Assembly: GCA_017459945.1 (NCBI GenBank) | Contig: JAFUBZ010000021.1 | Coordinates: forward strand, 62,001 to 126,000 | Reading direction: 5' to 3' | DNA length: 64,000 nt | Source of the DNA: Eubacterium sp. | GTDB lineage: Bacteria > Bacillota > Clostridia > Lachnospirales > Lachnospiraceae | Shown here: one piece after another, positions 1,553 to 25,281 of the stretch | Layout: every line of letters starts with the position of its first letter | Numbering within the stretch: position 1 is the first letter of the stretch | The notes under the pieces: model-generated | What the model was told of the DNA's origin: nothing | The model's input: the letters and a program-made list of their open reading frames with translations, nothing else | Databases searched by the model: none | Program-made: the position numbers and the translations under genes

Positions 1553-2908
1553 ATGGCATCTCAGACAGCCGGGAAGGATACCTCTCTCGGACGTACGTTT
1601 TTTTCATATGTGTTCCCAAACATCCTGGGAATGATCGGCATATCCGCATATATCCTGGCGGATACTTTTTTTATTTCTGTCGCAGAAGGTGCGAATGGTC
1701 TGACGGCACTCAATCTGGTCCTGCCGGTTTACAGCATCATCTTTGCGATCGGCAATATGATCGCCGTTGGTTCTGCGACCCGTTTTCGGATTTTCAAAGC
1801 ACAGGAAAACCCTGAAGCAGACCATTATTTCACCAATGCCGTTGTCTTTTGTTTCCTGTTCAGTATTCCGTTTCTACTCATCGGGTTATTGTTTCCGCAG
1901 GGCCTGGTTACACTTCTAGGTGCGGATGAAGTAATCATCCCTCTGGCCGCTCCGTATTCTAGGATCTTCATGCTGTTCACCCCGTTTTTTATGTGGACTT
2001 ATGTGGCAAATGCCTTTGTCAGAAATGACAATGCGCCAAAAGTTGCGATGGCTGCTACACTCATCAGCAGTCTCTTTAACATCGTCATGGACTATGTCCT
2101 GATGTTCCCGCTTCATTTGGGTATGCGCGGTGCGGCACTTGCGACCGCGATCTCTCCAATCATCGGGATCATCATCTGTGCTACCCACATTTTTTCAAAA
2201 AGGAGCTCGATCCGATTCATAAAAACACGTCCGTCTTTGATCAGACTGTTCCGCTCCTGTCAGCTCGGTGTATCCGCCATGATCGGTGAGCTGGCACAGG
2301 GTGTGACCACGCTTTCATTTAATTTCCTGATCCTGTCGATCACCGGAAATGTCGGTGTGGCAGCTTACGGCGTGATTGCCAATATCGCTTTTGTCGGGAA
2401 TGCGATCTTTAACGGTCTTTCCCAGGGTTCACAGCCTCTTTTCTCATACTATTACGGCAAAAAAAGAACCGGCGATGTCGGCCGTCTTTTGCGGCTTACC
2501 ATCCTGACCGGTCTTGTTCTTGCTGTACTTGTACTTCTGGTAACAAATCTCTTTGCAGATCCGCTGGTTGCCATCTTTAATTCGGAAAACAACCCTGCCA
2601 TGGCAGATCTGGCAGTTGTCGGCATGCATCTTTACTTTATCGGATATCTTTTTGCTGCAGTCAACATTGTCGCCTGTGGTTATCTCGGGGCAACGGAAGC
2701 TGCTACATGGTCTTTTATCACATCTCTTTCAAGAGGTCTGATCGCCATTCTCCTTTTTGCGTTTATCCTGTCAAAGCTTTTTGCGATGACCGGCATCTGG
2801 CTGGCGTTCCCGGCCGCAGAGGCTGTGACGCTGATCCTTTCTGTCATTGCCATGGGGCATTGGCGAAAACACCTTTTTCTTTCCCTTTTTTCTTCTCCAA
2901 CTCCTTAA
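1553..2908 (+). CDS. MATE family efflux transporter
   Basis: 451-residue polytopic membrane protein with about twelve hydrophobic segments arranged in two similar halves, the size and pattern of MATE Na+/H+-coupled exporters. Visible family-like stretches are ADTFFISVAEGANGLTALNL near residue 40 and FNGLSQGSQPLFSYYYGKKR near residue 285, where the second half repeats the Q-P...Y-G pattern. Exports cationic drugs or metabolites; the substrate cannot be read from sequence. Monocistronic behind its own promoter. Its last 65 bases overlap, on the opposite strand, the end of the LysR gene at 2844-3788. Confidence 0.9.
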   Translation: MASQTAGKDTSLGRTFFSYVFPNILGMIGISAYILADTFFISVAEGANGLTALNLVLPVYSIIFAIGNMIAVGSATRFRIFKAQENPEADHYFTNAVVFCFLFSIPFLLIGLLFPQGLVTLLGADEVIIPLAAPYSRIFMLFTPFFMWTYVANAFVRNDNAPKVAMAATLISSLFNIVMDYVLMFPLHLGMRGAALATAISPIIGIIICATHIFSKRSSIRFIKTRPSLIRLFRSCQLGVSAMIGELAQGVTTLSFNFLILSITGNVGVAAYGVIANIAFVGNAIFNGLSQGSQPLFSYYYGKKRTGDVGRLLRLTILTGLVLAVLVLLVTNLFADPLVAIFNSENNPAMADLAVVGMHLYFIGYLFAAVNIVACGYLGATEAATWSFITSLSRGLIAILLFAFILSKLFAMTGIWLAFPAAEAVTLILSVIAMGHWRKHLFLSLFSSPTP

Positions 2909-3788
2909 TCACGCGATCGAGCTGTTTCATGAAAATCGGGATTGCCGGATTATAATTGCTGCGATTCCATGCTGCCACCAGACTGGGATCCCATTTCATC
3001 TTTTCCATCTCATATGCCTTAATATACGGATTGAATCTCAGCATATTTCTCGAATCCAGAATCGTGATTCCTTTTCCCGTTTCTGTACTTAACATCATAT
3101 CATAAAGAGAAGGCGCATATTTGATATTGGGATAAAACCCCCTTTCTTTACACGCATCAATAATCAGTTCCGATGATTCCAGACAGTCTTCTCGTGAAAT
3201 CAGAATAAACACCTCATCCCGACAATCTGCCAGTGTCACACGATCTTTTGATGCCAGATGATGATAACGATTCATCATCAGATAATCACGACTGTGTTCC
3301 ACATGTTTTCTAATCAGATAATCCTTTTGCGCGACGGAAAAATGAACCGTGAATGCAATATCCAGCGCACTGCTGTACAGCTTATTCTCCAGTTCCTCAA
3401 AGGAGCAGTTTTCGAACATGATCTCCACATAAGGATGCTGCTGCTCAAAAAAAGATATGATCAAAGGCATAAAGTCGGAGACATATGTTCCGTCCAGAAT
3501 TCCTATTCTTAAGTCTCCGTTAATTCCTTTTTGAATTTGCTGTGCTGTAGAAACAGCTCCCTGATACTGCTCATATACGTCCGCCCATTGCTCCTCCAGC
3601 GACCTGCCCGCCGGTGTCAATGTAATGGAACGTCCATGCCTGATAAACAGCTGCAGATTCAGCTCTTCCTCCATATTTAAAATCTGTCTGCTCAACGTCG
3701 GCTGTGAAACACCAAGCTGGTCTGCTGCCTTTGTGAAATTCAGAGTTCTGGCAACCGTCAGAAACCATTTGATTTGTGAAATCGTCAT
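2844..3788 (-). CDS. LysR family transcriptional regulator (paralogue of the one at 8412)
   Basis: 314 residues. Residues 1-60 form the LysR winged helix (ISQIKWFLTVARTLNFTKAA, then QLGVSQPTLSRQI); the rest is a periplasmic-binding-protein-like effector domain starting about residue 90. It resembles the regulator at 8412-9326 along its whole length, for example a shared ESSELI segment and WDPS near the end, so the two arose by duplication and bracket the symporter/methyltransferase island. Transcribed away from that island's last small gene, convergent with the MATE exporter and overlapping its end by 65 bases. The effector is unknown; the likely targets are the intervening genes. Confidence 0.88.
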   Translation of the reverse strand: MTISQIKWFLTVARTLNFTKAADQLGVSQPTLSRQILNMEEELNLQLFIRHGRSITLTPAGRSLEEQWADVYEQYQGAVSTAQQIQKGINGDLRIGILDGTYVSDFMPLIISFFEQQHPYVEIMFENCSFEELENKLYSSALDIAFTVHFSVAQKDYLIRKHVEHSRDYLMMNRYHHLASKDRVTLADCRDEVFILISREDCLESSELIIDACKERGFYPNIKYAPSLYDMMLSTETGKGITILDSRNMLRFNPYIKAYEMEKMKWDPSLVAAWNRSNYNPAIPIFMKQLDRVIKELEKKKGKEKGVFANAPWQ

Positions 3789-3874
3789 TTTATATCAGAA
3801 ACCTTTCAAAAATCCAACATTCACGGGAATCCAATTTCAGTATACCACAATTCATGCCGGATGAGAGACAAGCT

Positions 3875-3898
3875 ACGGGACTGCCAAGGCAGTCCCGT
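3875..3898 (-). terminator. Hairpin at the end of the symporter operon
   Basis: Perfect 10-bp stem ACGGGACTGC / GCAGTCCCGT with a 4-base loop, 10 bases beyond the stop of the 36-residue gene. No U-tract follows, so termination is inferred from stem strength and position only. Confidence 0.55.
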
Positions 3899-3908
3899 AA
3901 ACGCAATT

Positions 3909-4019
3909 TTATTGATCATCATCTTTGTTTTTCTTCTGGAGACTCCATATTCCCTGGAGTACTACAAAGAAGACCATTGCTAAAACGATGCAAAGCATCC
4001 AGATTTGTGTCATACTCAT
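3909..4019 (-). CDS. Tiny single-span membrane protein (36 aa) of the symporter operon
   Basis: Short frame starting at ATG 4017-4019 with a GGGGGA ribosome site that lies in the end of the preceding 46-residue gene (3 bases between them). Product starts MSMTQIWMLCIVLAMVFFVV and ends in a charged tail KKNKDDDQ: one membrane helix of ~18 residues and a short cytoplasmic tail. I do not recognise the family. Its place directly behind a sodium:solute symporter, with tight spacing and good ribosome sites, suggests a small accessory subunit or regulator of that transporter, as seen for other SSS-family carriers. Confidence 0.7.
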   Translation of the reverse strand: MSMTQIWMLCIVLAMVFFVVLQGIWSLQKKNKDDDQ

Positions 4020-4022
4020 AGC

Positions 4023-4163
4023 TTATTCCCCCTTCTCATCTGCGACATCGATCAATTCGTCGCTGTCTCCAAATTTATTGACTTTCCCAATCAGAAATCC
4101 CACTGCCGTGATCGCAAAGACCATAATAGCGGCACTGACGATTGTACTAACGACCATATGCAT
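4023..4163 (-). CDS. Small single-span membrane protein (46 aa) of the symporter operon
   Basis: Starts at ATG 4161-4163 with a strong AAGGAGG 9 bases upstream; 39 bases downstream of the symporter stop. The product has one hydrophobic helix (residues about 5-26: VSTIVSAAIMVFAITAVGFL) and an acidic tail ending DVADEKGE. No family recognised. With the next gene (36 aa) it forms a pair of tiny membrane proteins transcribed after the symporter; likely accessory subunits. Too short for usual ORF length filters, so easily missed. Confidence 0.75.
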   Translation of the reverse strand: MHMVVSTIVSAAIMVFAITAVGFLIGKVNKFGDSDELIDVADEKGE

Positions 4164-4202
4164 AAAAGGCACCTCCTTAAATCTTATTCCAGGTAACACA
4201 CG

Positions 4203-5690
4203 CTACGCTTCTGCGCTTGCCTCTGCCTTTTTCCTGCCTTTCCCTTTATACAGTCCCGGTTTACCCGGCAGAACTGCGGTCAGGATGACACCAAGAACAA
4301 CTGCAAAGATTAGTGATACATAGTTAACATGGAGCTGAGCGAACGCAGGATTGCCTGCTGCCAATGTGTTTTGCAATCCGAATGTAGACCAGATACATAC
4401 TGCGATCCAGGTGATGACAAATGTAATGATCGTCGCCATCTCACTTCTCTTCCACCACATACCGATCACAGCCATGACAAAGACCGGTATACCAAAGGAG
4501 AATATCCAGTTAACCATCTCAACCGGTGCAGGCTGCAGATTACAGATTACGATCGAGATGACCGTGATGATCACGATGATGATACGGATCAGACGCGTCT
4601 GCTGCTTTTCTGTCGCATGCGGATTCTTAATGCCATACATGTCATGTGTGATAACCGTTGACGGCGCCAATGCCATAACTGCAAAACTGGAAAGGTCGAC
4701 ACCCAGGAATCCTGCTGCAAGCAGTGCCACAGCCCACGGCGGAAGCAGATCTTTTAACATTGCCGGGGTCATGTTCAGTGTACCGGCATTACGATATACG
4801 ACAATGGAGAACGCTGCTACACCGATCAATGCCGGAATAATACAGAACATACCGTTTACCGGACCTGCAAACCAAAGGGATTTCTTTACCTCTTTATTGC
4901 TCTTAGCCGTCGCAACCGGCTGATAACCTGTCTGCGCCATACCATGGAATAAAGATGCACCAACAGCTGTCGGGATCGCAAATCCGATAATCAGCTGTCC
5001 ATTTCCAAACATGCTGGTGTACCACGGTGTCTCACTCGCAAGAATGTTTGCTTCAACACCATCCCATCCTCCAGGAAGTGAAAAGCACAGGCAGACCAGA
5101 ACGACGATCAAAGATACATACATCACAACTGCATTGATCAGGTTCAGCCATGCAATCTCTTTCATGCCGGCCAGAAGCACATACAGGCATGCGATGATAC
5201 CACCAATCACTGCACATACCATATAGGACCAGCCGGTCAGGAATGCGAGGGTAACCGCGATCGTTTCGACTTCCAGTGCACACATGGAAATACCAAGTGC
5301 TGCATTGATTGAAGCCACAAGTGCTCCCGACTTCTTACCAAAAATATGTGCCAGAAACTCGCCGACCGTCTTTGCTCCAGACCGGCGGATCCATGGGCCG
5401 GTGAACTGTGTGATAACGACCATCATGACAACGCAGGCGATTGAGAACCATACTGCGATAACCCCCATTGCGCCGGCATTCTGACTGGTTCCCCAGTTGT
5501 GGGCCGATCCCAGCAATGTTAAAGCCAGCGTGACGCCCACGAGCGATGCCGGCAATCCGCTTCCCGCAAAAGCAAAGCCGCCGGCTTCTTCACTGCCTCT
5601 TTTTTTATTCTTTCGTGCGATGATCGAACTGACGATGATAATGGTCGCAAGTTCATAAATAATAACCGCTATGATTGCACCCCAATTCAT
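4203..5690 (-). CDS. Sodium:solute symporter (SSS family)
   Basis: 495-residue integral membrane protein with about 13 hydrophobic segments, beginning with a helix (MNWGAIIAVIIYELATIIIV) and ending in a basic tail rich in Lys. Contains GAKTVGEFLAHIFGKKSGAL, matching the SSS pattern around TM3 (R..T..E/D..), and the glycine-rich core GVTLALTLLGSAHNWGTSQN near residue 55. It would import a small organic solute with Na+. Divergent from the methyltransferase-like genes at 5945 and 7117 and followed by two tiny membrane proteins, so the solute is probably the substrate of those enzymes (inference). Confidence 0.88.
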   Translation of the reverse strand: MNWGAIIAVIIYELATIIIVSSIIARKNKKRGSEEAGGFAFAGSGLPASLVGVTLALTLLGSAHNWGTSQNAGAMGVIAVWFSIACVVMMVVITQFTGPWIRRSGAKTVGEFLAHIFGKKSGALVASINAALGISMCALEVETIAVTLAFLTGWSYMVCAVIGGIIACLYVLLAGMKEIAWLNLINAVVMYVSLIVVLVCLCFSLPGGWDGVEANILASETPWYTSMFGNGQLIIGFAIPTAVGASLFHGMAQTGYQPVATAKSNKEVKKSLWFAGPVNGMFCIIPALIGVAAFSIVVYRNAGTLNMTPAMLKDLLPPWAVALLAAGFLGVDLSSFAVMALAPSTVITHDMYGIKNPHATEKQQTRLIRIIIVIITVISIVICNLQPAPVEMVNWIFSFGIPVFVMAVIGMWWKRSEMATIITFVITWIAVCIWSTFGLQNTLAAGNPAFAQLHVNYVSLIFAVVLGVILTAVLPGKPGLYKGKGRKKAEASAEA

Positions 5691-5727
5691 AAAATATACC
5701 CCTTTCTTTCCATGGTACGCAGTGCTG

Positions 5728-5857
5728 CCTACTGCAAATTTCGTGCGTCGATTTCGTTTATAAAAATTCTATAAAACTATTATCTGTTTGCCAAATAAAG
5801 AAATTGCATAGGGGTATCCATCTTTACTATCGCGATTTTCTCCGCTCCTATTGCAAA
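5728..5857. repeat. Repeated CCTAYTGCAAA motif in the divergent control region
   Basis: CCTACTGCAAA at 5728-5738 and CCTATTGCAAA at 5847-5857 in direct orientation, with a related ATTGCATAGG in reverse at 5803-5812. The second copy covers the -35 of the rightward promoter. Such spaced repeats could be binding sites for one of the two LysR proteins; this is inference. Confidence 0.45.
5766..5794 (-). promoter_or_regulatory. Promoter of the symporter operon
   Basis: Minus strand TTGGCA (5789-5794), 17 bases, TAGAAT (5766-5771), 76 bases before the symporter ATG. Confidence 0.65.
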
Positions 5858-5880
5858 GAAAAACGACTATCCGATAGAAT
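5851..5880 (+). promoter_or_regulatory. Promoter of the first methyltransferase-like gene
   Basis: TTGCAA (5851-5856), 18 bases, TAGAAT (5875-5880). The -35 overlaps the CCTATTGCAAA motif and the -10 overlaps the small palindrome CTATC-C-GATAG (5867-5877), consistent with activator control. Confidence 0.6.
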
Positions 5881-5944
5881 GACAGTAGCTGATGTGAAAC
5901 ATAAAAGCAAAATCATCAACCGTGTTATAAGGAGGAAATGAACC

Positions 5945-6937
5945 ATGATGACACCGAAAGAAAACTTTTTGGCAACCATCCGCGGCGAGAATCCGGATCG
6001 TTTCGTAGACCAGTATGGATATATGCAGCTGATATTTGATCCGGTGATGTGGAAGATTACCGGTATGCCTTTCACTATGAAACCGGGTGAATGTGTCGTT
6101 AACGGTTGGGGGGTTACCGTTAACTTCAGAGAAGATGCTCCGGGGCCAATGCCGGTTCATAATGATGAACTGACCGTATTAAAGGATATTACAGAATGGA
6201 AAGATGTTGTCAAAGCTCCTGAAGTCGTACTTGGCGACGAAGCTTGGGCTGACGCTGTCAAAGAAGCCGAATCCATTGACCGAGACCAGTATCTGGTCGG
6301 TTGCTTCACAGCTCCCGGTATTTTTGAAAAGATTCATTATCTGATGGGTATGGAAGAAGCCTTTTATGCGCTTTACGATGAACCGGAAGCACTGAAGGAA
6401 TTAATTGATTTTATGGCAGACTGGGAAATCAAGCTGGCAGCGGAACAGATTAAATATTTAAAACCCGATGTCGTATTCCATCATGATGACTGGGGCAGTC
6501 AAATCAATTCCTTCATGGATCCGGAGATGTTTGATGAACTCCTTACGCCGGCTTATAAACGCGTGTACGGATTCTATAAAGAACACGGTCTTCTGGTTGT
6601 TCATCATTCCGATTCCTATGCAGCCAATCTGGTCCCATCCATGATTGAAATGGGAATCGATGTATGGCAGGGATGCTTGTCAACCAACAACCTGCCGGAG
6701 CTGATCAGGGAATACGGTGGACAGATTTCCTTCCAGGGCGGCATTGACAGCACGCGCATTGATCATGTTGACTGGACAAAAGAAGAAGTCCGTACTGTGG
6801 TAGAAGAAGCATGCCGCGCAAACGGAACCAAATTCTTTATCCCCAGCAATACTATGGGCGGTCCCGGCAGCATTTATCCGGGTGTCTATGAGACGATTTC
6901 GGAAGAAATCGACAGAATGAGTAAAATCATGTTTTAA
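5945..6937 (+). CDS. Uroporphyrinogen decarboxylase-fold methyltransferase-like protein, copy 1
   Basis: 330 residues, the length and pattern of the UroD/MtaA/CmuA superfamily, whose non-heme members move methyl groups between corrinoid proteins and thiols or folates. Visible features are HHDDWGSQ (179-186), VVHHSDSYA (218-226) and FQGGID near residue 255. The zinc ligand motif HxC of MtaA/MtbA is replaced by HHS, so it is not a standard CoM-type methylase; no other heme gene is nearby, so it is not HemE. Start has AAGGAGG 8 bases upstream. No corrinoid protein or reactivase is in the window, so the partner must be elsewhere. Distinct from, but functionally paired with, the 417-residue protein at 7117. 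Confidence 0.82.
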   Translation: MMTPKENFLATIRGENPDRFVDQYGYMQLIFDPVMWKITGMPFTMKPGECVVNGWGVTVNFREDAPGPMPVHNDELTVLKDITEWKDVVKAPEVVLGDEAWADAVKEAESIDRDQYLVGCFTAPGIFEKIHYLMGMEEAFYALYDEPEALKELIDFMADWEIKLAAEQIKYLKPDVVFHHDDWGSQINSFMDPEMFDELLTPAYKRVYGFYKEHGLLVVHHSDSYAANLVPSMIEMGIDVWQGCLSTNNLPELIREYGGQISFQGGIDSTRIDHVDWTKEEVRTVVEEACRANGTKFFIPSNTMGGPGSIYPGVYETISEEIDRMSKIMF

Positions 6938-6979
6938 ATAGTTCTTTCATATCGTTCATCAGATTCACAAGAAGCATAC

Positions 6980-7008
6980 GAGGCTCCGATTCATCGGAGC
7001 CTCTTCTA
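6980..7008 (+). terminator. Terminator-like hairpin between the two methyltransferase-like genes
   Basis: Perfect stem GAGGCTCCGA / TCGGAGCCTC (6980-6989, 6994-7003), 4-base loop, followed by TTCT only. May attenuate rather than fully stop transcription into the gene at 7117. Confidence 0.6.
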
Positions 7009-7116
7009 TACGGTTTCTGTATAATTCCATTCCTTAACTTCTATAGTTATATGAAACCGGCTTTGTTACAATGGCATCAGTAAAAACAACTCTGCTCTTT
7101 ATTCAGGAGGTCTATT

Positions 7117-8370
7117 ATGGAAGGAATGCATCCAAAATTCTTAGAGCGCACCAAATTGTTAGATGATACTGTTGCATGCAAACATACTGATCGCATCATG
7201 ACTGCTCCCTTTTATACCTATTTACCGATCCTGTTATATCAGGAAACAACTATTGCGGATACGATGCAGGACTGGCGAAATGCCATCCCTTCCTATTATC
7301 GGTATCATCGGGAATTTCAGCCGGATCTGGCTTATGGGCCCGAAGCGATCTTCCCCGGCAGCGCTTTAAAAGCATTGGACTGTAAATTTGTCCGTGTCCC
7401 GGGCGTACATTTCCCGGAAAAAAACATTGGCTTTCAGGTATTGGATCATGAGGACGGATATATGTCTCCTGATGAATACCTGGAATATGCAGAAGATCCA
7501 ACCGGATTCTTAATGAAAAAAATCCTGCCACGTCATTTCGGCAAACTGGAAGGCCTTGCTTCCCTTGATTTTTCCATGGCAATCTGGCACGGTATGCTCT
7601 ATACAACCCTTGGTGCACTGAACCCACAGGTCAAAACCGCTTTTGACGCGATCATGGACTGTGCGGGCATTATGGGCGAACAGGTTGCGGCAGACGGCGA
7701 ATTCTATGTCACCATGATGCAGGAGGGCTTCCCTTCCGGCGCGGATCTGGTTACTTCAGCTCCTTTTGATATTTTCAATGACACCCTGCGTGGATTCATG
7801 AATATCACCATGGACCTTTACGAATGTCCGGATGAAGTTCTGGAAGCCGTCAATGCCGCTACAAAAATCCAGGTCCGTTATCTGAAAAACACGATCAAAT
7901 CCAGACCGATCAAAATCATTGGCTTTATGTTACACAATGGATTTGATATGTTTATGAGCAAAGAACAATTTGAAACCTTCTACTGGCCGGGCTTAAAGGC
8001 TTGTATTGATGTTTGCGTCGAAAACAATGTCATTCCTTGGATTTATGTGGAAGACAGCTACATGAACAAGCTGGATATCATTGAGCGCGATGTTCCCGAG
8101 AAAAAAGTCATCATGACCTTCACCGGAACCAATGATATGAAAATAGTCAAAGAGCGTTTTGGCGGAAAAATCTGCTTAAAAGGCGGATTGTCCGAAAATG
8201 TTATTGAATTTGGTTCAAAAGAAGATGTTATAAAAATGGTAAAAAATGCCATTGACATCTATGCGCCGGGCGGTGGGCTGATCCTGGATGTGGATGTCAC
8301 GTTAGATAATGCACCGGCTGAAAACATTCACGCTCTGTTTGATACTGCAAGAGACTATATGAAATATTAA
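7117..8370 (+). CDS. Uroporphyrinogen decarboxylase-fold methyltransferase-like protein, copy 2
   Basis: 417 residues, longer than copy 1 and only distantly similar. The C-terminal half carries the superfamily pattern: PWIYVEDSYMNKLDII (where many members have a metal-binding His/Cys), MTFTGTND, then a glycine-rich end APGGGLILDVD. Substitution of the usual zinc ligands suggests a substrate other than methylcobalamin:thiol transfer, or a different metal site. Ribosome site AGGAGG 8 bases before the ATG. Followed after 41 bases by a LysR gene in the same direction, so regulator and enzyme are probably co-transcribed. Confidence 0.8.
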   Translation: MEGMHPKFLERTKLLDDTVACKHTDRIMTAPFYTYLPILLYQETTIADTMQDWRNAIPSYYRYHREFQPDLAYGPEAIFPGSALKALDCKFVRVPGVHFPEKNIGFQVLDHEDGYMSPDEYLEYAEDPTGFLMKKILPRHFGKLEGLASLDFSMAIWHGMLYTTLGALNPQVKTAFDAIMDCAGIMGEQVAADGEFYVTMMQEGFPSGADLVTSAPFDIFNDTLRGFMNITMDLYECPDEVLEAVNAATKIQVRYLKNTIKSRPIKIIGFMLHNGFDMFMSKEQFETFYWPGLKACIDVCVENNVIPWIYVEDSYMNKLDIIERDVPEKKVIMTFTGTNDMKIVKERFGGKICLKGGLSENVIEFGSKEDVIKMVKNAIDIYAPGGGLILDVDVTLDNAPAENIHALFDTARDYMKY

Positions 8371-8411
8371 GTTTCGGATATATTTGCATTATCACCACAG
8401 GAGACAAGATT

Positions 8412-9326
8412 ATGACCTTTGCGCAGATTAAGTATTTTATTACAGTCGCAAAATGTTTGAGCTTTACCAAGGCTGCTGAACAATTGTTCTTAACGCAGCC
8501 TGCACTAAGTCGTCATATCAGCAGGATGGAAGAAGAGCTCAATGTACAGTTGTTTATCCGTACCGGCAGCGGCATCCGCCTTACACCGGCAGGAAGCGCG
8601 CTTTATCTTGGTATGACAGATTTGTATGAACAGTATCAGGAACAGGTCAGAAAGGCACATAAGATTCAGGAAGGCATGATCGGAAGCTTATCGATCGGAT
8701 TCCTGAACAATATGAACCTGGCTGATTTTATGCCACTCGTCTACCGGGAACTAAAAGAGAAATATCCGAATGTAGACATTCTCCCCGTCAGGGCAAGCTT
8801 TGATGACCTGATCAGCGGCGTCTATTCCGGTAAATACGATCTGATCTTCACCGTTCAATTCGAAGTGGTTGATAAGGAAAGTCTGTTGTATCAATATGTG
8901 CATCATTCAAAAGATCACATTGTGATGAGCCGTTTTCATCCCCTTGCAGGCAAAGCGCATGTCACGCTGGATGATGTAAAAGATGAACTGTTTGTCATGA
9001 TCTCCCCGGAAGACAATCCGGAATCATCTGAACTCATTTTTAATATCTGTAAGGAACATGGTTTTGTCCCCACTGTAAAATTTGCAAGAACCATGGAGGA
9101 ACAGGCTCTCTGGATTGAATCCGGCATGGGTGTAACTATCCTGGATTCCTGCTGCACTCTTCGTATGAATCCGGACATTCTATTCTTTGAAATAGACAGC
9201 AACTGGGATCCTTCTATGGTCGTTTGCTGGAACCAGCAAAACTATAACCCCATGATTTCTGTATTTGTCAAAAAGATGAATGAAGTCTTAAATCTGACTG
9301 ATGAAGAATTACATGGCATTTCATAA
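8412..9326 (+). CDS. LysR family transcriptional regulator (paralogue of the one at 2844)
   Basis: 304 residues. N-terminal winged helix (AQIKYFITVAKCLSFTKAAE, LTQPALSRHI) and a C-terminal effector-binding domain. Clearly homologous to the protein at 2844-3788 throughout (ESSELIF, GVTILDS, NWDPS, NYNP all shared or nearly so). Last gene of the rightward methyltransferase-like operon. The presence of two related regulators around one transporter and two enzymes suggests that each senses a different intermediate or that they act together on the 5691-5944 control region. Confidence 0.88.
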   Translation: MTFAQIKYFITVAKCLSFTKAAEQLFLTQPALSRHISRMEEELNVQLFIRTGSGIRLTPAGSALYLGMTDLYEQYQEQVRKAHKIQEGMIGSLSIGFLNNMNLADFMPLVYRELKEKYPNVDILPVRASFDDLISGVYSGKYDLIFTVQFEVVDKESLLYQYVHHSKDHIVMSRFHPLAGKAHVTLDDVKDELFVMISPEDNPESSELIFNICKEHGFVPTVKFARTMEEQALWIESGMGVTILDSCCTLRMNPDILFFEIDSNWDPSMVVCWNQQNYNPMISVFVKKMNEVLNLTDEELHGIS

Positions 9327-9331
9327 AAAAA

Positions 9332-9366
9332 CTGACGCAGGCGTTTACTCCTGCGTCAGCTTTTCG
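9332..9366. terminator. Bidirectional terminator between convergent genes
   Basis: Perfect 10-bp stem CTGACGCAGG / CCTGCGTCAG (9332-9341, 9350-9359). Leftwards it is followed by seven T; rightwards by CTTTT. The stem also encodes the last residues (L-T-Q-E-stop) of the minus-strand RyR gene. Confidence 0.85.
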
Positions 9367-10052
9367 ATCTCTTCTTTCAGGACGGCATCCCAGATGCCGT
9401 CCTTTTCTTTTTCATTCTGCGGCAGATCCGCATACGGGATCAGAAGGTGATGGCGGCGTTTTGCATCATCACGCACCGGATCATACTTCCAGTGATTGAT
9501 GTAGTGGAAACGGCACCAGCGGATGTGCTCAAGCTCCCACAAAACATGCTCATCTGTCCCACTTTCGGAAAGCCGTTTTTCAATCCAGTAATGATCAGCC
9601 CTCGCGATGTTCGATCCCTTTTTAAAGCCATCCAAAGCAACCCATTCCTTTTCCATTTCCACTTCATAGTCACCGGATACATGCCGATTACCATATCGAA
9701 GCGCATAGTCATAGTTAAACAGCTTTGCTTTCCGGTAAATCGCTTCTCTTTTGATCTGATCCTCTGTCAGGATCTCATCCAGCATTCCAAACACCACGAC
9801 AGCGTTTCCGGCATAGATCCGGTCAAGCTCCATTGGCTGCGGACTCCAGCAGTGAACCTTACCGTCCGGATTCCTATAAAGGATCTCCTGCAGCAATTCA
9901 ATATACGGCTCTTTTGTCAGGATCACGCGGTTCATCCCGGCGATCAGATCCAGCGATTCTCTGCAATCCTCTTCATGAACGATCACACGATCCTGATTTT
10001 CAAACTGCAGCTCTTTCAGGAATTCCTTCTGTACAATATCACAGCCCCACAC
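9345..10052 (-). CDS. TrkA-N/RyR domain protein (C-terminal half of split channel-like gene)
   Basis: 235 residues if the GTG at 10050-10052 is used, but the frame is open up to 10199 and the missing 49 codons encode the nucleotide-binding beta-alpha-beta unit (AIIGYEKVGQAIF), so this start would give a damaged domain; a CTG at 10182-10184 with GGAGGG 8 bases upstream is the only other candidate. The C-terminal third (about residues 165-215: LWELEHIRWCRFHYINHWKY followed by DPVRDDAKRRHHLLIPY) is a RyR domain, the ~50-residue fold first seen in ryanodine receptors and found in bacteria next to TIR and RCK domains. Middle part is a second RCK/TrkA-N-like region. Third gene of the TIR-nSTAND operon. 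Confidence 0.72.
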   Translation of the reverse strand: MWGCDIVQKEFLKELQFENQDRVIVHEEDCRESLDLIAGMNRVILTKEPYIELLQEILYRNPDGKVHCWSPQPMELDRIYAGNAVVVFGMLDEILTEDQIKREAIYRKAKLFNYDYALRYGNRHVSGDYEVEMEKEWVALDGFKKGSNIARADHYWIEKRLSESGTDEHVLWELEHIRWCRFHYINHWKYDPVRDDAKRRHHLLIPYADLPQNEKEKDGIWDAVLKEEIEKLTQE

Positions 10053-10199
10053 ATGATATTCGATCTTCTGATCCAGGCGATAAATATTGTTCAGATACGC
10101 ATAGCGAAAAATCGCCTGTCCGACTTTTTCATATCCAATGATCGCAATCTGTACCGGTTCTGCGTTCTCTGTCTCCTCAAACAGATTCTGGTCCCTCCA

Positions 10200-10751
10200 T
10201 TATTTTCTTGCCGTCAGATAAAATACATTGAAAAAATGCACATTTCCGCTTGCCTCGAGCAGAAACGGATCGATCTCATTCAATAAAATGTAAACAGGTT
10301 TCCCGGAAAATGCATCCTTCTGACCCGAATACAACCGGATGTTCTGCAGATCATCCTGATACATGATGATGTGATTTTCTGTTTTTTCTGCCTTTTTCCC
10401 CGGTGCGAAATAACCATGGCGAAGTGATTTTGCCAATCGCATTCCTTCTTCGGTATCACTATAGACTGCTGTTGAATCCTTATATCTGCGGGCAAAAAAA
10501 CGATCGATTGCACCAGCCAGGCTGCTTAGGATCACGATCAGGACACTCGTTGTAACGACCACAGCCGTGATCTTCGCAAGCAAGATTATGATATTACTGT
10601 TGTCTGTGACAGGATTGACAAAATACAGGGCGCCGGATGCATAGATCGATTCCCAGAAGCCCATATGCGAAAGTCCGAAGTATCCGATCATGCCAAGCAC
10701 AAAAGGTACCCAGAAAAACCGTTTGATCACCTGTTTAAAAATCTCAGCCAT
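10200..10751 (-). CDS. Two-TM channel-like protein (N-terminal half of split RCK/RyR gene)
   Basis: 183 residues ending at the TAA 10200-10202. Hydrophobic helices at about residues 13-30 and 53-80 bracket a pore-loop-like stretch (ESIYASGALYFVNPVTDNSN), as in 2-TM K+-channel-like proteins; after a basic segment (FFARRYKD) follows a cytosolic domain with TAVYSDTEEG and HIIMYQDD, resembling an RCK/TrkA-N fold. Start ATG has GGAGAA 8 bases upstream and lies 18 bases after the NTPase stop. Its C-terminus runs in frame, through the stop, into the RyR protein, so it is probably a fragment of one gene. Confidence 0.68.
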   Translation of the reverse strand: MAEIFKQVIKRFFWVPFVLGMIGYFGLSHMGFWESIYASGALYFVNPVTDNSNIIILLAKITAVVVTTSVLIVILSSLAGAIDRFFARRYKDSTAVYSDTEEGMRLAKSLRHGYFAPGKKAEKTENHIIMYQDDLQNIRLYSGQKDAFSGKPVYILLNEIDPFLLEASGNVHFFNVFYLTARK

Positions 10752-10769
10752 ATCTGTTTTCTCCTGAAC

Positions 10770-13028
10770 TTACTCCTGCAGGGTACGCTCGCTCGACGCG
10801 TCCATCAGTCTGCCGTACAGATTCTCTCTGGTCATATGTGCCATAAACGCATATCCGATCAGGATGCAGGTCATGATCATTTCCACCACGATCAGATACC
10901 GCGGGATCACCGGGTTAAACGCCCAGATCACCAGATGGAAAAAGATAAATGCAATCCCCATCAGTGCACATTTCAACCCGTAATTGCGCAGTTCCATCCG
11001 GCTCGCGCGCTGATAGGTACCATCCAGAAGAAATGCACCGAAAAATCCCATCACTGCAAGGAACGCGCCAATACACAGCATGTTATGCGGATATGCAAAC
11101 ATCGTGATCAGCGTTCCGAACATGATGATCACATAGGTGATCTTACAGCCCTTTTCTTTTTTGCCGCGGCAAAACCGGAACACTTTATTGTACATGCAGA
11201 AGAGGTAGATCAGGCTCATCTCGGTTCCGAACAGCGGGAACAGACTTCTGACATCGCCGTATGCATTCCAGGCGCTCAGCCCATGTGTCCAGGGATTGTA
11301 TCCCAGATTGACAAATGCATACGCGATCACTGCCAGGATCGCAAACGTGATCGTCAGATTGCGGTAAAAGCCGGACTGATGCACTCTCTTAAAGAATTCC
11401 CGTTTCGCCCGGATTCCTTCCGCCTTGCTGGTATCAAGATATTCCGAAAGATAGATATCCAATGCACCTCTGACATTCCGGTCGATATTCGAACTGCTGT
11501 AGTTTAAGTATGACTGAGCGATAAAATCATGCGCGATCTCATATTCCAGATCCGAATCCTTCACGGTCTGTCTGATCAGCTGCAGATCAACAAGCTCCTC
11601 AAGGACCTTTGTCAGCTGCTTATGACCTTCTGGCGAAAGGTAGTCAGGATTCAGACCAAAAATCAGGTCTGTCTTCTTCATGACCACCTGGTGCATCCGC
11701 GCCGTCGAAAGAAGATAGAGAATCCGCGACGCGTTATAATAATCATCGGTTGACGTCAGCTGAATGTCAAAGTACTGGTTTAAAAGCTCATAGCTTTCCA
11801 GATCATACATTTCCAAAAGCATCTCATCCGTAGCATTTTTTCTTTTTCTTTCATACTCTGCCATATGATAGAAGATCTGCTGCTCGATCAAAGGCTCCGT
11901 CTTGTGCTTTTCATAATAGTGTTTACCGTCTTCGCCAAGCTGCAGCTCACACTTGCGCTCAAGCTTTGTCATGCCAAAACGATCGTCGGCATTTTCCTGC
12001 GTATGCGCATCATTCTGATTTTCACAATAAAAAATGGTATTCCCGACCTGTTCGAGTACTGCATCTTCAAATGCTGCACCGATATGTTCTAAATGAATGT
12101 GCTGGTTGGTCTTGATCAAACCACCATTCCACTCATCCGCTGCCTTCTCCTGGCTCTTATCCGACAGGATAAAATAATTCTTATCCGAATCCTTGATCGT
12201 GCTGACCAGATCATTCAGAATGCCGGATTCATTCCCATTCTGACGGTCTCTTCCGAGTGCCTTCAGGTTGTTGACATTGAATTCCTTCATGAAATCTGCC
12301 AGATACTCTTCGCGCATCGACAGGATCAGCGCAGTGTTTTTACGCGCAATGAGCATGATCAGGTCACGAACTTCCCGCTTCTTTTGTTCATCCAGAAAGA
12401 AGTAGCGTTCAAACTGGTCCAGGATAAATACGACCTTCTTATTCCTGACTTTTTCTTCCAGACTGTTTTTTACATTTTCACCAAGATGTGTTTCCAGGAT
12501 CATTTTGAAATTCGGATAGTTATCGGTCATATCGTAGATCAGATAATCATCCCCGTACATCTTTCTGAAAAACGACAGAATCGTCGATTTTCCACATCCT
12601 GATGTTCCAGTCAAACAGACCGCCTGTTTAATCGTTTTCTGCGGAAAAACGAGATCCTCCAGTGTCTGCCTGATATAAGCAGCTTCTGCTTCGCGGGAAA
12701 GAATGTCGTCACTTTCAAGGTCCTTTACAACCGCGATGTTATACAAGCCCAGAAACGAAAACCCTTCCGTCCTGCGATAGGCTTCGATCCGATTCTTTGT
12801 CGCCCGACTTTTCAACAGAAGCACACCTACTACCAGGATCACAAGCACTGCCTCCGGGATCAGGCGCAGCCCCTGGGGTACAAATGGAAGCATGGTATCT
12901 AAGACAGATGCTGCCGTCACTCCGACAAGGAGTCCTGCCAGAATGTGAAAGGTTTTATCCTTCACTCCATATACATTGTATCCCGTCTTCTTTTTTGCCT
13001 GTACTTTCTTTTTTTCAATCGCCTGCAT
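10770..13028 (-). CDS. Membrane-anchored nSTAND-like P-loop NTPase
   Basis: 752 residues. Two membrane helices near residues 28-48 and 57-73, then a P-loop NTPase: Walker A GTSGCGKST (141-149), Walker B VVFILDQFE (199-207), and SMREEYLADF about residue 235, the Arg-containing motif that follows Walker B in STAND-like (nSTAND) ATPases. A helical/winged-helix region follows (about 400-530, LIRQTVKDSDLEYEIAHDFI resembles STAND C-terminal winged helices), then about six membrane helices (560-735). Architecture: membrane-bound signal switch. It overlaps the upstream TIR gene by 14 bases and is followed after 18 bases by the channel-like gene, so the three are translated as an operon. Best guess: sensor/relay of a defence or nucleotide-signalling system; not a characterised family to my knowledge. 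Confidence 0.8.
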   Translation of the reverse strand: MQAIEKKKVQAKKKTGYNVYGVKDKTFHILAGLLVGVTAASVLDTMLPFVPQGLRLIPEAVLVILVVGVLLLKSRATKNRIEAYRRTEGFSFLGLYNIAVVKDLESDDILSREAEAAYIRQTLEDLVFPQKTIKQAVCLTGTSGCGKSTILSFFRKMYGDDYLIYDMTDNYPNFKMILETHLGENVKNSLEEKVRNKKVVFILDQFERYFFLDEQKKREVRDLIMLIARKNTALILSMREEYLADFMKEFNVNNLKALGRDRQNGNESGILNDLVSTIKDSDKNYFILSDKSQEKAADEWNGGLIKTNQHIHLEHIGAAFEDAVLEQVGNTIFYCENQNDAHTQENADDRFGMTKLERKCELQLGEDGKHYYEKHKTEPLIEQQIFYHMAEYERKRKNATDEMLLEMYDLESYELLNQYFDIQLTSTDDYYNASRILYLLSTARMHQVVMKKTDLIFGLNPDYLSPEGHKQLTKVLEELVDLQLIRQTVKDSDLEYEIAHDFIAQSYLNYSSSNIDRNVRGALDIYLSEYLDTSKAEGIRAKREFFKRVHQSGFYRNLTITFAILAVIAYAFVNLGYNPWTHGLSAWNAYGDVRSLFPLFGTEMSLIYLFCMYNKVFRFCRGKKEKGCKITYVIIMFGTLITMFAYPHNMLCIGAFLAVMGFFGAFLLDGTYQRASRMELRNYGLKCALMGIAFIFFHLVIWAFNPVIPRYLIVVEMIMTCILIGYAFMAHMTRENLYGRLMDASSERTLQE

Positions 13029-14280
13029 TCGCTTTGTCCTCTAAATCCCAGATCGTGTTTCTGCATCGTTCCAGAGAAACGCCGGCTTCTCTGACCCCGT
13101 GTGCAAATGCCTGCTCATAACAGACGATCGCATTTCTAAGTTCCTTTTTTTCTTCGTAGATCCATCCGAGTGCATAGGTCGCAAGCGGGATCGCATCTTC
13201 GCCATAGGCAACCTGTCTGAGCAGCTTCTCTGCCTCTTCTTCTTTATCTTCCTCAGATCTGATCAACATTGCATAATTATAGATGGCTGCAGGATACTTC
13301 TTGTCTTTTGCTCTTTTGTAATAATATTTTGCCTTTTCTCTGTCTGCTTCAATTCCGCCGAATCCGTTGTGATAAATCCAGCCAAGCGCATTCAGAGCGG
13401 GCAGATAATTCTTTTGGGCGGCTTTCTCATATTCCTGTATTGCCGCTTCATAATCTCCGTCATTTTCCCTGAGATTCCCCAGACGATACTGTGCCGGTGC
13501 CAGCTCTGCAGTTGCTGTCTTCTCATAATATTCCCGTGCCTTTGCAAGAAAAAACTGCCTGATCTCTTCCGGTTCTTTTCTGCCTTCCGTATCCAGTCCA
13601 TATTCTGTGATCAAAGTCAGATCTTTTGCGCATCGCTCAAAAATGTCTCCAAGATTGTACCCTGCATGCAGATAACCGCCTTCAAATGCTTCCTGATACA
13701 AAAGATACGCTTTTGCCAGATTCTGCGGTTCGGAATACATGCCCTGCTCATAGATCAGTGCCAGTTCGTTGGTCGCCGCCTGGGAACCCTCCTGGCTTTT
13801 TCGTTCCACTTCCTCTACATAATCTCTGTCAGATGGATATTCTACCTTGCTTTGCAGCATTTGATCGGCCATTTTCGTCAGCACCGCATCAAAATACTCC
13901 ATGTTTGCAGACACACCATTATACCGGGGCAGCATTGCCATGCTTTCCGGCAGATCCTCCGGAAAGACAAAATTGCGCATCAACACCGGGATGATGTTTT
14001 TCCCGCATTGCATCGCATGCTCAATCTCTCTGCGCACCCAATCTTCCGGATCCCCGATACAGCGGTCCAGTCCGTTCGGCGGCAAAACTACAAGGACATC
14101 CTCACACTTTTCGATCACACCTAAAAGCTTTTCATTGAAGTCTCCGGAGCGCAGGGATTCCACATCATAAAAGACACGGTATCCCATACGGGTAAGCCGC
14201 TCATACAAAAGTGCCGCCAGACTTTCCCCGCCTTCGCGGCGGTAACTGACAAATATCTGATAATCAAGATTGTAGTCCAT
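13015..14280 (-). CDS. TIR domain protein with Sel1-like repeats
   Basis: 421 residues from the ATG at 14278-14280, chosen because AAGAGG lies 6 bases upstream; a longer frame to 14310 has no ribosome site. Residues 1-140 form a TIR domain: YQIFVSYRRE at the start, GYRVFYDVESLRSGDF as box-like strand/loop, and WVRREIEHA with Glu85 at the position of the catalytic Glu of NAD-cleaving TIRs. Residues about 150-410 hold Sel1-like/TPR helical repeats (for example NALGWIYHNG, YALGWIYEEK), a common sensor or scaffold region. Enzyme role (NADase or cyclic ADP-ribose maker) is inference from the retained Glu. First gene of the TIR-NTPase-channel operon, 46 bases after an Rrf2 gene. Confidence 0.87.
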   Translation of the reverse strand: MDYNLDYQIFVSYRREGGESLAALLYERLTRMGYRVFYDVESLRSGDFNEKLLGVIEKCEDVLVVLPPNGLDRCIGDPEDWVRREIEHAMQCGKNIIPVLMRNFVFPEDLPESMAMLPRYNGVSANMEYFDAVLTKMADQMLQSKVEYPSDRDYVEEVERKSQEGSQAATNELALIYEQGMYSEPQNLAKAYLLYQEAFEGGYLHAGYNLGDIFERCAKDLTLITEYGLDTEGRKEPEEIRQFFLAKAREYYEKTATAELAPAQYRLGNLRENDGDYEAAIQEYEKAAQKNYLPALNALGWIYHNGFGGIEADREKAKYYYKRAKDKKYPAAIYNYAMLIRSEEDKEEEAEKLLRQVAYGEDAIPLATYALGWIYEEKKELRNAIVCYEQAFAHGVREAGVSLERCRNTIWDLEDKANAGD

Positions 14281-14326
14281 ATCAATCCTCTTAAAAAAAT
14301 GAAAGCTCAAAAAGATGTCTTATAGC

Positions 14327-14761
14327 CTAGATCATATACATCCCGATCTCTGCCGCATTCTGATCCAAAACATCCTGCAATGTGATCCCTGAAAGATAGT
14401 CAATGATCAGATCCCGCAGGCCCTCCCAGATCGGCAGTGTCCTGCAATAGGACGCTCTCGGACACTGGTTCTCTTCATCCTCAAGGCAGTCGATCACATT
14501 CAGGCCGCCTTCCGCGCAGGAAACGATTTCCGCAATTGTGATCTCAGAAGGATGACGCGCAAGCTTATATCCGCCCTTTTGTCCTTTTGCAGTCCGTAAA
14601 AGATGTGCCTGGTTCAAAAGCGGTATGATCTGCTCCATATACTTCTTGGAGATTCCCTGTCTTTTTGTGATCTCTTTTAACGCAATAAATTCTTCTCCGT
14701 CATGCTCTGCGAGATCGACCATCATTCTAAGGGCATAACGTCCGCGTGTTGATATTTTCAT
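14327..14761 (-). CDS. Rrf2 family regulator, copy 1 (CymR/IscR-like)
   Basis: 144 residues from the ATG at 14759-14761, with AAGGAG 5-6 bases upstream (a GTG two codons earlier sits on the ribosome site). Winged helix in residues 1-80 (STRGRYALRMMVDLAEH, GISKKYMEQIIPLL, GGYKLARHP), then the cysteine motif C-x7-C-x5-C (CLEDEENQCPRASYC) that in IscR-type members binds an Fe-S cluster. Lies downstream of cysK and separated from it by a terminator, so it likely controls cysteine synthesis like CymR or Fe-S genes like IscR. A paralogue sits at 19698. Runs in the same direction as the TIR operon. Confidence 0.88.
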   Translation of the reverse strand: MKISTRGRYALRMMVDLAEHDGEEFIALKEITKRQGISKKYMEQIIPLLNQAHLLRTAKGQKGGYKLARHPSEITIAEIVSCAEGGLNVIDCLEDEENQCPRASYCRTLPIWEGLRDLIIDYLSGITLQDVLDQNAAEIGMYMI

Positions 14762-14871
14762 AGCCACTCCTTTTTTATGTAAAAGCCTACTTCTTCCGTA
14801 TACTTATATGTTCATTATACGTGTTTCCTGTCAAAAAACAACTCTTAGCATATCGGCATAATCACGAAAAA

Positions 14872-14897
14872 GCAGGTCCTGCTTTCACAGAACCTGC
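14872..14897 (-). terminator. Terminator after cysK
   Basis: Minus strand stem GCAGGTTCTG / CAGGACCTGC (one mismatch), followed by TTTTT; begins 34 bases after the cysK stop. Confidence 0.85.
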
Positions 14898-14930
14898 CCA
14901 CTCATGGTAACAGAAGAAATGGTTTCATGA

Positions 14931-25049: not shown

Positions 25050-25109
25050 ATATTCTCCTTTATGTGCAATCTGATCTGACGATGAGAGAACCTTTGTTAC
25101 AGTGTTGAT

Positions 25110-25240
25110 TCTGCTTTTTTCTTTCTCTCTGACGACCCGTCGTGACATCCTGTCTTTCCGATGCCTTTGGCCGTGGCAGCACCCGCCGAATCTTTCGATC
25201 ACTGCCAACCTCGTCAACCCGTCAGGGTCCTGGCGCTAAT
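25110..25240 (-). ncRNA. glmS ribozyme (riboswitch), in front of hexapeptide-nagB-glmM
   Basis: Self-cleaving RNA cofactored by glucosamine-6-P. On the minus strand the conserved core is plain: cleavage site A25237 | G25236 in TTAGCGCCAGGACC, then GACGAGG, a stem-loop with ATCGAA, and TTCGGCGGGTGC followed by a P4-like region. The 3' end (~25110) is approximate. It lies between the glmS stop (25351) and the start of the hexapeptide gene (25049), so it heads that operon; the 5' region of glmS itself (27220-27370) shows no such core. Cleavage would destabilise the hexapeptide-nagB-glmM transcript when glucosamine-6-P is high. Confidence 0.92.
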
Positions 25241-25281
25241 AGCTTCCTTTTCCTCCTTAAAAACAGGAACCTATTTTAAAA

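What the first reader, a model, noticed from the sequence alone, without database searches (positions are those of the whole stretch)
10182..10202. Single in-frame TAA splits the RCK/RyR channel gene
Seen directly: the frame is open on both sides of TAA (10200-10202) for 183 and 284 codons, with no ATG, GTG or TTG in the next 49 codons, and the first GTG would remove the Rossmann strand. The residues on each side (FNVFYLTARK | WRDQNLF) read like one continuous fold and TAA is one base from Tyr. So this copy is likely inactivated or the stop is read through. Loss of a toxic effector while its regulators survive would be informative about the system.
Basis: partly seen in the sequence, partly recalled or inferred. 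Interest (0 to 1): 0.75.

Follow-up and report, generated by a model that had tools for sequence, protein, structure and literature searches.

The report
Nonsense-broken TIR-partner RyR channel gene
In this gut-type bacterium a gene for a putative membrane channel, which probably opens in response to an immune signal made by its neighbour gene, is cut in two by one stop codon that none of its relatives carries, so the sensor and signal-maker look intact while the executor looks broken.

Summary
On the minus strand, TAA at 10202-10200 ends a 183-codon frame (ATG 10751) and the same frame stays open for 284 more codons. Both congeners carry one intact 468-codon gene, and 43 of 43 family rows have a sense residue there (Tyr 35, Phe 7, Leu 1), inside the conserved motif [DE]-x-x-A-R-x-[YF]-W. 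A second conserved residue of that motif is altered 20 bases upstream. Otherwise the gene shows no decay: all 26 strongly conserved columns are kept and lineage N/S equals the sister's. The stop is therefore recent, or a consensus error of this metagenome-type assembly; readthrough or restart is unlikely.

What the gene is matters more. It encodes two membrane helices, two RCK lobes (GsuK/CASTOR-like) and a RyR domain keeping the ligand residues of the cADPR-binding phage protein RyDEP. RyR proteins in Bacillota repeatedly sit beside TIR genes: 9 of 50 channel loci immediately, about 0.06 expected; 4 of 8 further genomes within 160 bases. Best reading: a Thoeris-like TIR-to-RyR-channel pathway whose executor is broken here while its TIR and STAND partners look intact on a recently recombined tract. 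Function is inferred, untested; a relevant 2025 preprint was unavailable.

The parts
10200..10751 (-). 5' part of the broken gene: 183 codons, two membrane helices plus most of the first RCK lobe
   Evidence: model of the intact sister protein
10200..10202 (-). in-frame TAA at codon 184, inside the last helix of RCK lobe 1
   Evidence: helix 176-187
10218..10220 (-). codon 178: Tyr here, Asp/Glu in 39 of 43 relatives; second altered residue of the same motif
9345..10199 (-). 3' part: 284 open codons, RCK lobe 2 and RyR domain, no canonical start in the first 49 codons
9399..9530 (-). RyR domain (PF02026), with H409, W412, H434, D451 (full-length numbering) kept
10182..10198 (-). CTG with GGAGGG 8 bases upstream: the only plausible restart signal; it lies within coding sequence in the sisters
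10770..13028 (-). nSTAND NTPase with C-terminal membrane segments, intact, 99.6% identical to the sister's
13015..14310 (-). TIR-Sel1/TPR protein, intact, 99% identical to the sister's
10640..14900 (.). tract about 98-99% identical to the sister species against roughly 77-92% around it: recent recombination; covers Rrf2, TIR, STAND and only the first about 110 bases of the channel gene

Best explanation
The window carries a recently inactivated copy of a membrane channel gene. In its relatives the gene makes one protein: two membrane helices, a tandem-RCK gating ring and a C-terminal RyR domain. The partner TIR protein most likely makes an ADP-ribose-type nucleotide when the STAND/TIR sensor is triggered; the RyR domain binds it, the RCK ring moves and the pore opens, harming or arresting the infected cell. 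In this genome a stop removes the second RCK lobe and the RyR domain, so the executor is lost while TIR and STAND stay intact. Shown: the stop, intact orthologues, domain make-up, intact partners, TIR adjacency in relatives. Inferred: nucleotide made by TIR, binding by RyR, pore opening, anti-phage role, loss of function. Stop real and inactivating: about 0.65. TIR-to-RyR signalling in the family: about 0.75.
For: Intact single gene in both congeners and 43 of 43 rows with a sense residue at the column. Stop plus an altered D/E inside one conserved motif. No other interior stop among 46 aligned ORFs. Fold of the intact sister: LjCASTOR, GsuK, KtrA and TrkA rings, VIA Z 11-13. RyR residues H, W, H, D align with H75, W78, H100, D117 of RyDEP, taking PDB 35tm to be RyDEP, and are kept in 41, 42, 42 and 36 of 43 rows. 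TIR gene immediately adjacent in 9 of 50 channel loci, in the same cluster in 3 more; in 8 of 13 loci of other RyR proteins; separate draw: TIR within 160 bases of RyR in 4 of 8 genomes.
Against: The genome is one incomplete assembly and no second strain or read data were available. The two changed bases lie 20 apart and no other conserved column is changed, which fits a local sequence error about as well as decay. The downstream frame shows no relaxed selection (N/S 12/24 against 11/39 in the sister, p 0.32). The closest relatives outside the genus (16 loci, L035-L050) have no TIR gene found in flanks of about 5 kb. The pore of this clade lacks the K+ filter. 38 of 50 channel loci show no TIR neighbour.
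Confidence: 0.55

Rival explanations
1. The stop is a consensus or strain-mixture error of the assembly; the organism has an intact channel.
For: Incomplete assembly; two altered conserved codons within 20 bases and none elsewhere among 26 strongly conserved columns; by my estimate two independent changes fall that close in a 1.4 kb gene about 3% of the time; the downstream frame is otherwise unspoilt.
Against: No other interior stop among 46 aligned ORFs and ordinary N/S in neighbouring genes (cysK and metY together 10/93 here, 10/119 in the sister), so errors are not common in this contig.
Confidence: 0.3
2. The gene still works as two proteins: translation restarts at the CTG at 10184-10182 behind GGAGGG, giving a membrane part and a separate RCK2-RyR part.
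For: SD-like GGAGGG at 8 bases; the downstream part is intact and conserved; a Thermotoga Trk gating ring is made from two separate RCK subunits (PMC4380455, start of abstract seen).
Against: The same bases are plain coding sequence in the sister species; every relative has one ORF; the break falls inside a helix of RCK lobe 1, not in the linker; CTG starts are rare (recalled).
Confidence: 0.06
3. The stop is read through.
For: Downstream frame intact.
Against: TAA is the stop least prone to readthrough (recalled); no relative has a stop there.
Confidence: 0.02
4. The channel is a housekeeping nucleotide-gated ion channel (as GsuK) with no tie to TIR; its place beside TIR here is incidental.
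For: Butyrivibrio copies stand alone among housekeeping genes; GsuK is activated by ADP and NAD+ (PMC3510474, abstract).
Against: TIR adjacency far above chance, in several RyR architectures, with unlike TIR partners (LRR, TPR, MORN, Sel1); patchy occurrence, 44 of 348 family genomes.
Confidence: 0.2

Closest known systems
Thoeris anti-phage systems (TIR signal maker plus nucleotide-gated effector)
   Same: TIR gene beside or in one operon-like run with a protein whose RyR domain type binds 2'/3'cADPR in phage proteins; patchy spread; the TIR protein has sub-threshold NCBIfam Thoeris type III and weak PADLOC ThsB matches
   Different: Effector is a two-helix dual-RCK protein with a RyR domain, not SIR2-SLOG or Macro; no thsA-type PADLOC match; defence untested
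RyDEP and phage RyR-domain sponges (PMC13232231; abstract, main-text sections, passages and part of the reference list read)
   Same: PF02026 domain; H75, W78, H100, D117 all have counterparts
   Different: There a phage anti-defence enzyme or sponge; here the host protein, joined to a gating ring, as proposed sensor
GsuK and CASTOR/DMI1 gating rings
   Same: Tandem RCK fold; GsuK is a dual-RCK, nucleotide-gated K+ channel (abstract)
   Different: Added RyR domain; this clade has YFVNP instead of the K+ filter, which 9 of 43 relatives keep
Thermotoga TM1088A/B two-subunit RCK ring (PMC4380455, start of abstract in search listing)
   Same: RCK lobes on separate chains
   Different: A regular two-gene locus, not a nonsense-split gene

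Membership tests
Pseudogene / loss-of-function allele | Intact orthologues in close relatives | tested here: met
   2 of 2 congeners, 468 codons
Pseudogene / loss-of-function allele | Further decay or relaxed selection | tested here: not met
   26 of 26 conserved columns kept; whole-gene N/S 16/47 against 22/61, p 1.0; so recent at most
Pseudogene / loss-of-function allele | Stop confirmed in reads or other strains | not testable with these tools
   no reads or second strain held
RyR domain (PF02026) | Score over the curated cut-off | tested here: met
   28.5 against 27.4 bits; the sister protein falls just under, 26.7
Dual-RCK channel (GsuK type) | Tandem RCK lobes | tested here: met
   Z 11-13 to CASTOR, GsuK, TrkA rings, on the model of the sister protein
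Dual-RCK channel (GsuK type) | K+ selectivity filter T-x-G-Y-G | tested here: not met
   absent in the window and its clade; present in 9 of 43 relatives
Thoeris | TIR gene with its effector gene | tested here: met
   TIR-STAND-channel in one strand run in window, G001, G002
Thoeris | Known effector class (SIR2-SLOG, Macro) | tested here: not met
   no PADLOC or NCBIfam effector match
Thoeris | TIR product activates the effector; phage protection | not testable with these tools
   needs biochemistry and plaque assays

The most novel reading that the evidence does not exclude
RyR-domain dual-RCK membrane proteins are the executors of a widespread TIR immune pathway in Bacillota: a TIR-made cADPR-type signal gates a channel through a RyR domain, paralleling the proposed cADPR control of animal ryanodine receptors. 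In this genome the executor was lost after the TIR-STAND half was replaced by recombination from a sister species, perhaps because the new pair misfired with the old channel.
Probability: 0.45. Interest if true: 0.8.

Novelty: new variant of a known kind. Interest (0 to 1): 0.5.

Why it matters
The stop itself is an ordinary kind of mutation. The gene it breaks points to a bacterial pathway in which TIR-made nucleotides may gate a RyR-bearing channel. That would put a host receptor beside the phage RyR proteins reported in a 2026 preprint to bind or cleave cADPR isomers, and gives a simple bacterial setting for the old question whether RyR domains sense cADPR. A natural executor-null genome with its TIR and STAND kept is a ready contrast to its intact sisters.

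Tried and rejected
Shared stop or consistently split orthologues: rejected, 43 of 43 rows open. Rows dropped before that count: L003, L004, L005, L006 (same records as L033, L034, L038, L047), L027 (only the RyR part matched, in a longer ORF), and the window's own L001, L002. Restart at ATG/GTG/TTG near the stop: none. An ATG overlaps the TAA out of frame and gives only 7 codons. Relaxed selection downstream: not seen. TIR-STAND as a fixed partner: the STAND gene is in 3 of 348 family genomes, so the common pair is TIR with the RyR protein, not STAND. PADLOC and NCBIfam name no member of the channel family. Thoeris typing papers: the preprint cited for the newer TIR systems is not held. A script failed and was redone. 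No structure was predicted for the truncated product.

Full report
What is there. The gene lies on the minus strand. Its ATG is at 10751, 18 bases after the stop of the STAND gene, and after 183 codons it meets TAA at 10202-10200; the same frame is then open for 284 codons to a natural stop at 9345. Codons 185-233 contain no ATG, GTG or TTG. The first, GTG at 10052, lies behind the nucleotide-binding strand of the second Rossmann lobe. The finding's facts are therefore correct.

Orthologues. The two other genomes of the genus held here, G001 (its region matches the record titled Lachnospiraceae bacterium SIG275) and G002 (RUG14228), each have one 468-codon gene over the same span, 92% and 84% identical to the downstream part. 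In an alignment with 43 distinct relatives from the same bacterial family and near it, the column of the stop is Tyr in 35, Phe in 7 and Leu in 1; the next column is Trp in 43 of 43. The site lies in a motif [DE]-x-x-A-R-x-[YF]-W. The window is also altered at the acidic position of that motif (codon 178, Tyr; D or E in 39 of 43). The changed bases, against the sister, lie 20 apart.

Age of the stop. Of 26 columns identical in at least 39 of 43 rows, the window keeps all 26, 23 of them after the stop. Counting changes by parsimony with G002 as outgroup, the window lineage has 16 amino-acid-changing and 47 silent changes in the gene and the G001 lineage 22 and 61 (p 1.0); downstream of the stop 12/24 against 11/39 (p 0.32). 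So either the stop is very recent, or it is an error, or the downstream part is still made. Of 46 non-overlapping sister ORFs aligned to the window, only this one has an interior stop; three others show one only in a leader before an in-frame start. That speaks against a generally error-ridden contig, but the closeness of two damaging changes keeps local error alive. The assembly is 64.4% complete in 54 contigs, and no reads or second strain were available. A second family copy, L045, is also broken, by a frameshift in its RyR domain; it too comes from an uncultured-bacterium genome record.

Protein. Pfam finds only the RyR domain (PF02026; 28.5 bits against a cut-off of 27.4). The model of the intact G001 protein (18 sequences, mean pLDDT 83.6) shows membrane helices at the start, a first Rossmann lobe (about 92-187), a second (about 200-335) and a helical RyR end. 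Foldseek and VIA-align put it next to LjCASTOR, GsuK, KtrA and TrkA gating rings (Z 11-13). Codon 184 falls in the last helix of lobe 1 (176-187). The 183-residue product would thus have the membrane part and an unfinished first lobe, and no second lobe or RyR domain. Nine of 43 relatives keep the K+ filter TTVGYG; the window's clade has YFVNP in its place. Calling this clade's protein a channel is therefore an inference from descent and architecture.

The RyR domain as sensor. A 2026 preprint (PMC13232231; abstract, the main-text sections, found passages and the first part of the reference list read) reports that phage RyR-domain proteins bind or cleave 2'cADPR and 3'cADPR, through H75, W78, H100 and D117. 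The chain 35tm_A, which I take to be that protein because these residues match with an offset of one, aligns to the window's downstream frame (E 3.6e-7), and all four residues have counterparts: H409, W412, H434, D451 in full-length numbering. They are kept in 41, 42, 42 and 36 of 43 rows and in the window.

Neighbours. In the window, G001 and G002 the order is Rrf2 regulator, TIR-Sel1 protein, nSTAND NTPase with membrane segments, channel, all on one strand. I then scanned 50 distinct loci with a full-length-like channel (profile score of at least 200 bits; L064 dropped as a copy of L047). A TIR gene is the immediate neighbour in 9 (G344, G289, G221, G265, G284, G100, G015, G037, G060), in the same cluster in 3 (G001, G002, and G023 at 7.4 kb), and was not found in 38. 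Two of the nine are in opposite orientation (G344 divergent, G037 convergent). The TIR profile was made from six TIR domains found earlier by Pfam; ten further hits were checked and all ten pass Pfam's cut-off. Partners differ: LRR, TPR, MORN, Sel1 or STAND fusions. Some flanks are short because contigs end. Among 13 loci with other RyR proteins, 8 have an adjacent TIR gene (G235, G245, G294, G178, G156, G030, G089, G090) and 5 do not (G052, G229, G167, G296, G094). With 57 TIR matches in 35 of these genomes and an assumed 2,600 genes per genome, about 0.06 neighbours would be expected among 50 (the calculation used 37 and 44 loci and 1.66 TIR genes per genome). As a separate test I drew 398 genomes from the phylum: 10 have RyR matches; leaving out G000 and G209, already used, TIR_2 lies within 160 bases of a RyR domain in 4 of 8 (G654, G638, G722, G472; G638 and G722 share a genus), within about 2 kb in 2 (G262, G445), and is not found in 2 (G558, G677). 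The pairing is therefore real and not confined to this family. Against it: the nearest relatives outside the genus, 16 loci (L035-L050, Butyrivibrio, Eubacterium and relatives), show no TIR neighbour and the ones whose neighbours I named stand among housekeeping or unrelated genes, although the genome G209, whose copy matches B. hungatei's, has four TIR matches elsewhere. The tree needs at least 7 gains or losses of the immediate-TIR label.

Recombination. Between about 10640 and 14900 the window is mostly 97-100% identical to G001, against about 77-92% on either side; the tract covers Rrf2, TIR, STAND and only the start of the channel gene. In G002 the TIR protein is only 59% identical while STAND is 90%. 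TIR and STAND thus moved between species while the channel stayed. That the newly joined parts misfired and selected for loss of the channel is speculation.

Judgement. Loss of function by a real, recent nonsense change is the best reading of the allele (about 0.65), a consensus or strain artefact next (about 0.3). The wider reading, a TIR-made signal sensed by a RyR domain that gates an RCK-type pore, rests on adjacency, conserved ligand residues and fold, not on any assay (about 0.75 that TIR and RyR proteins signal to each other). It works like Thoeris but is not filed as Thoeris: its effector class was not matched. A preprint on TIR-based systems (Yirmiya 2025, cited in PMC13232231) is not held and may already describe RyR effectors, so novelty is stated with that reserve.

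Noticed in passing
window 10640-14900: Tract mostly 97-100% identical to the sister species against about 77-92% around it, holding Rrf2, TIR and STAND genes: recent inter-species recombination.
   Followed up: partly
window 2872-9343: Block with a sodium/solute symporter, two uroporphyrinogen-decarboxylase/MtaA-like genes and a LysR regulator that has no match in the fetched sister stretches.
   Followed up: no
L045:5269-6891: A second family copy broken by a frameshift inside the RyR domain.
   Followed up: no
window 10135-10256: Only three differences from the sister in about 120 bases around the stop, two of them the altered conserved codons, while the whole gene averages 88%.
   Followed up: partly
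L058:5244-16798: G023 carries TIR-Sel1, STAND, a T4SS coupling protein and a RyR channel in one run on one strand, so the module may travel on conjugative elements.
   Followed up: no
L096, L097, L098: Free-standing RyR proteins of about 100 residues directly before TIR genes: possibly a RyR partner without a channel.
   Followed up: no
window 25074-25248: A glmS ribozyme (63.2 bits, minus strand) lies downstream of the GlmS-like gene 27219-25351 and just ahead of the gene at 25049-24396, not in front of glmS, which is an unusual place.
   Followed up: no
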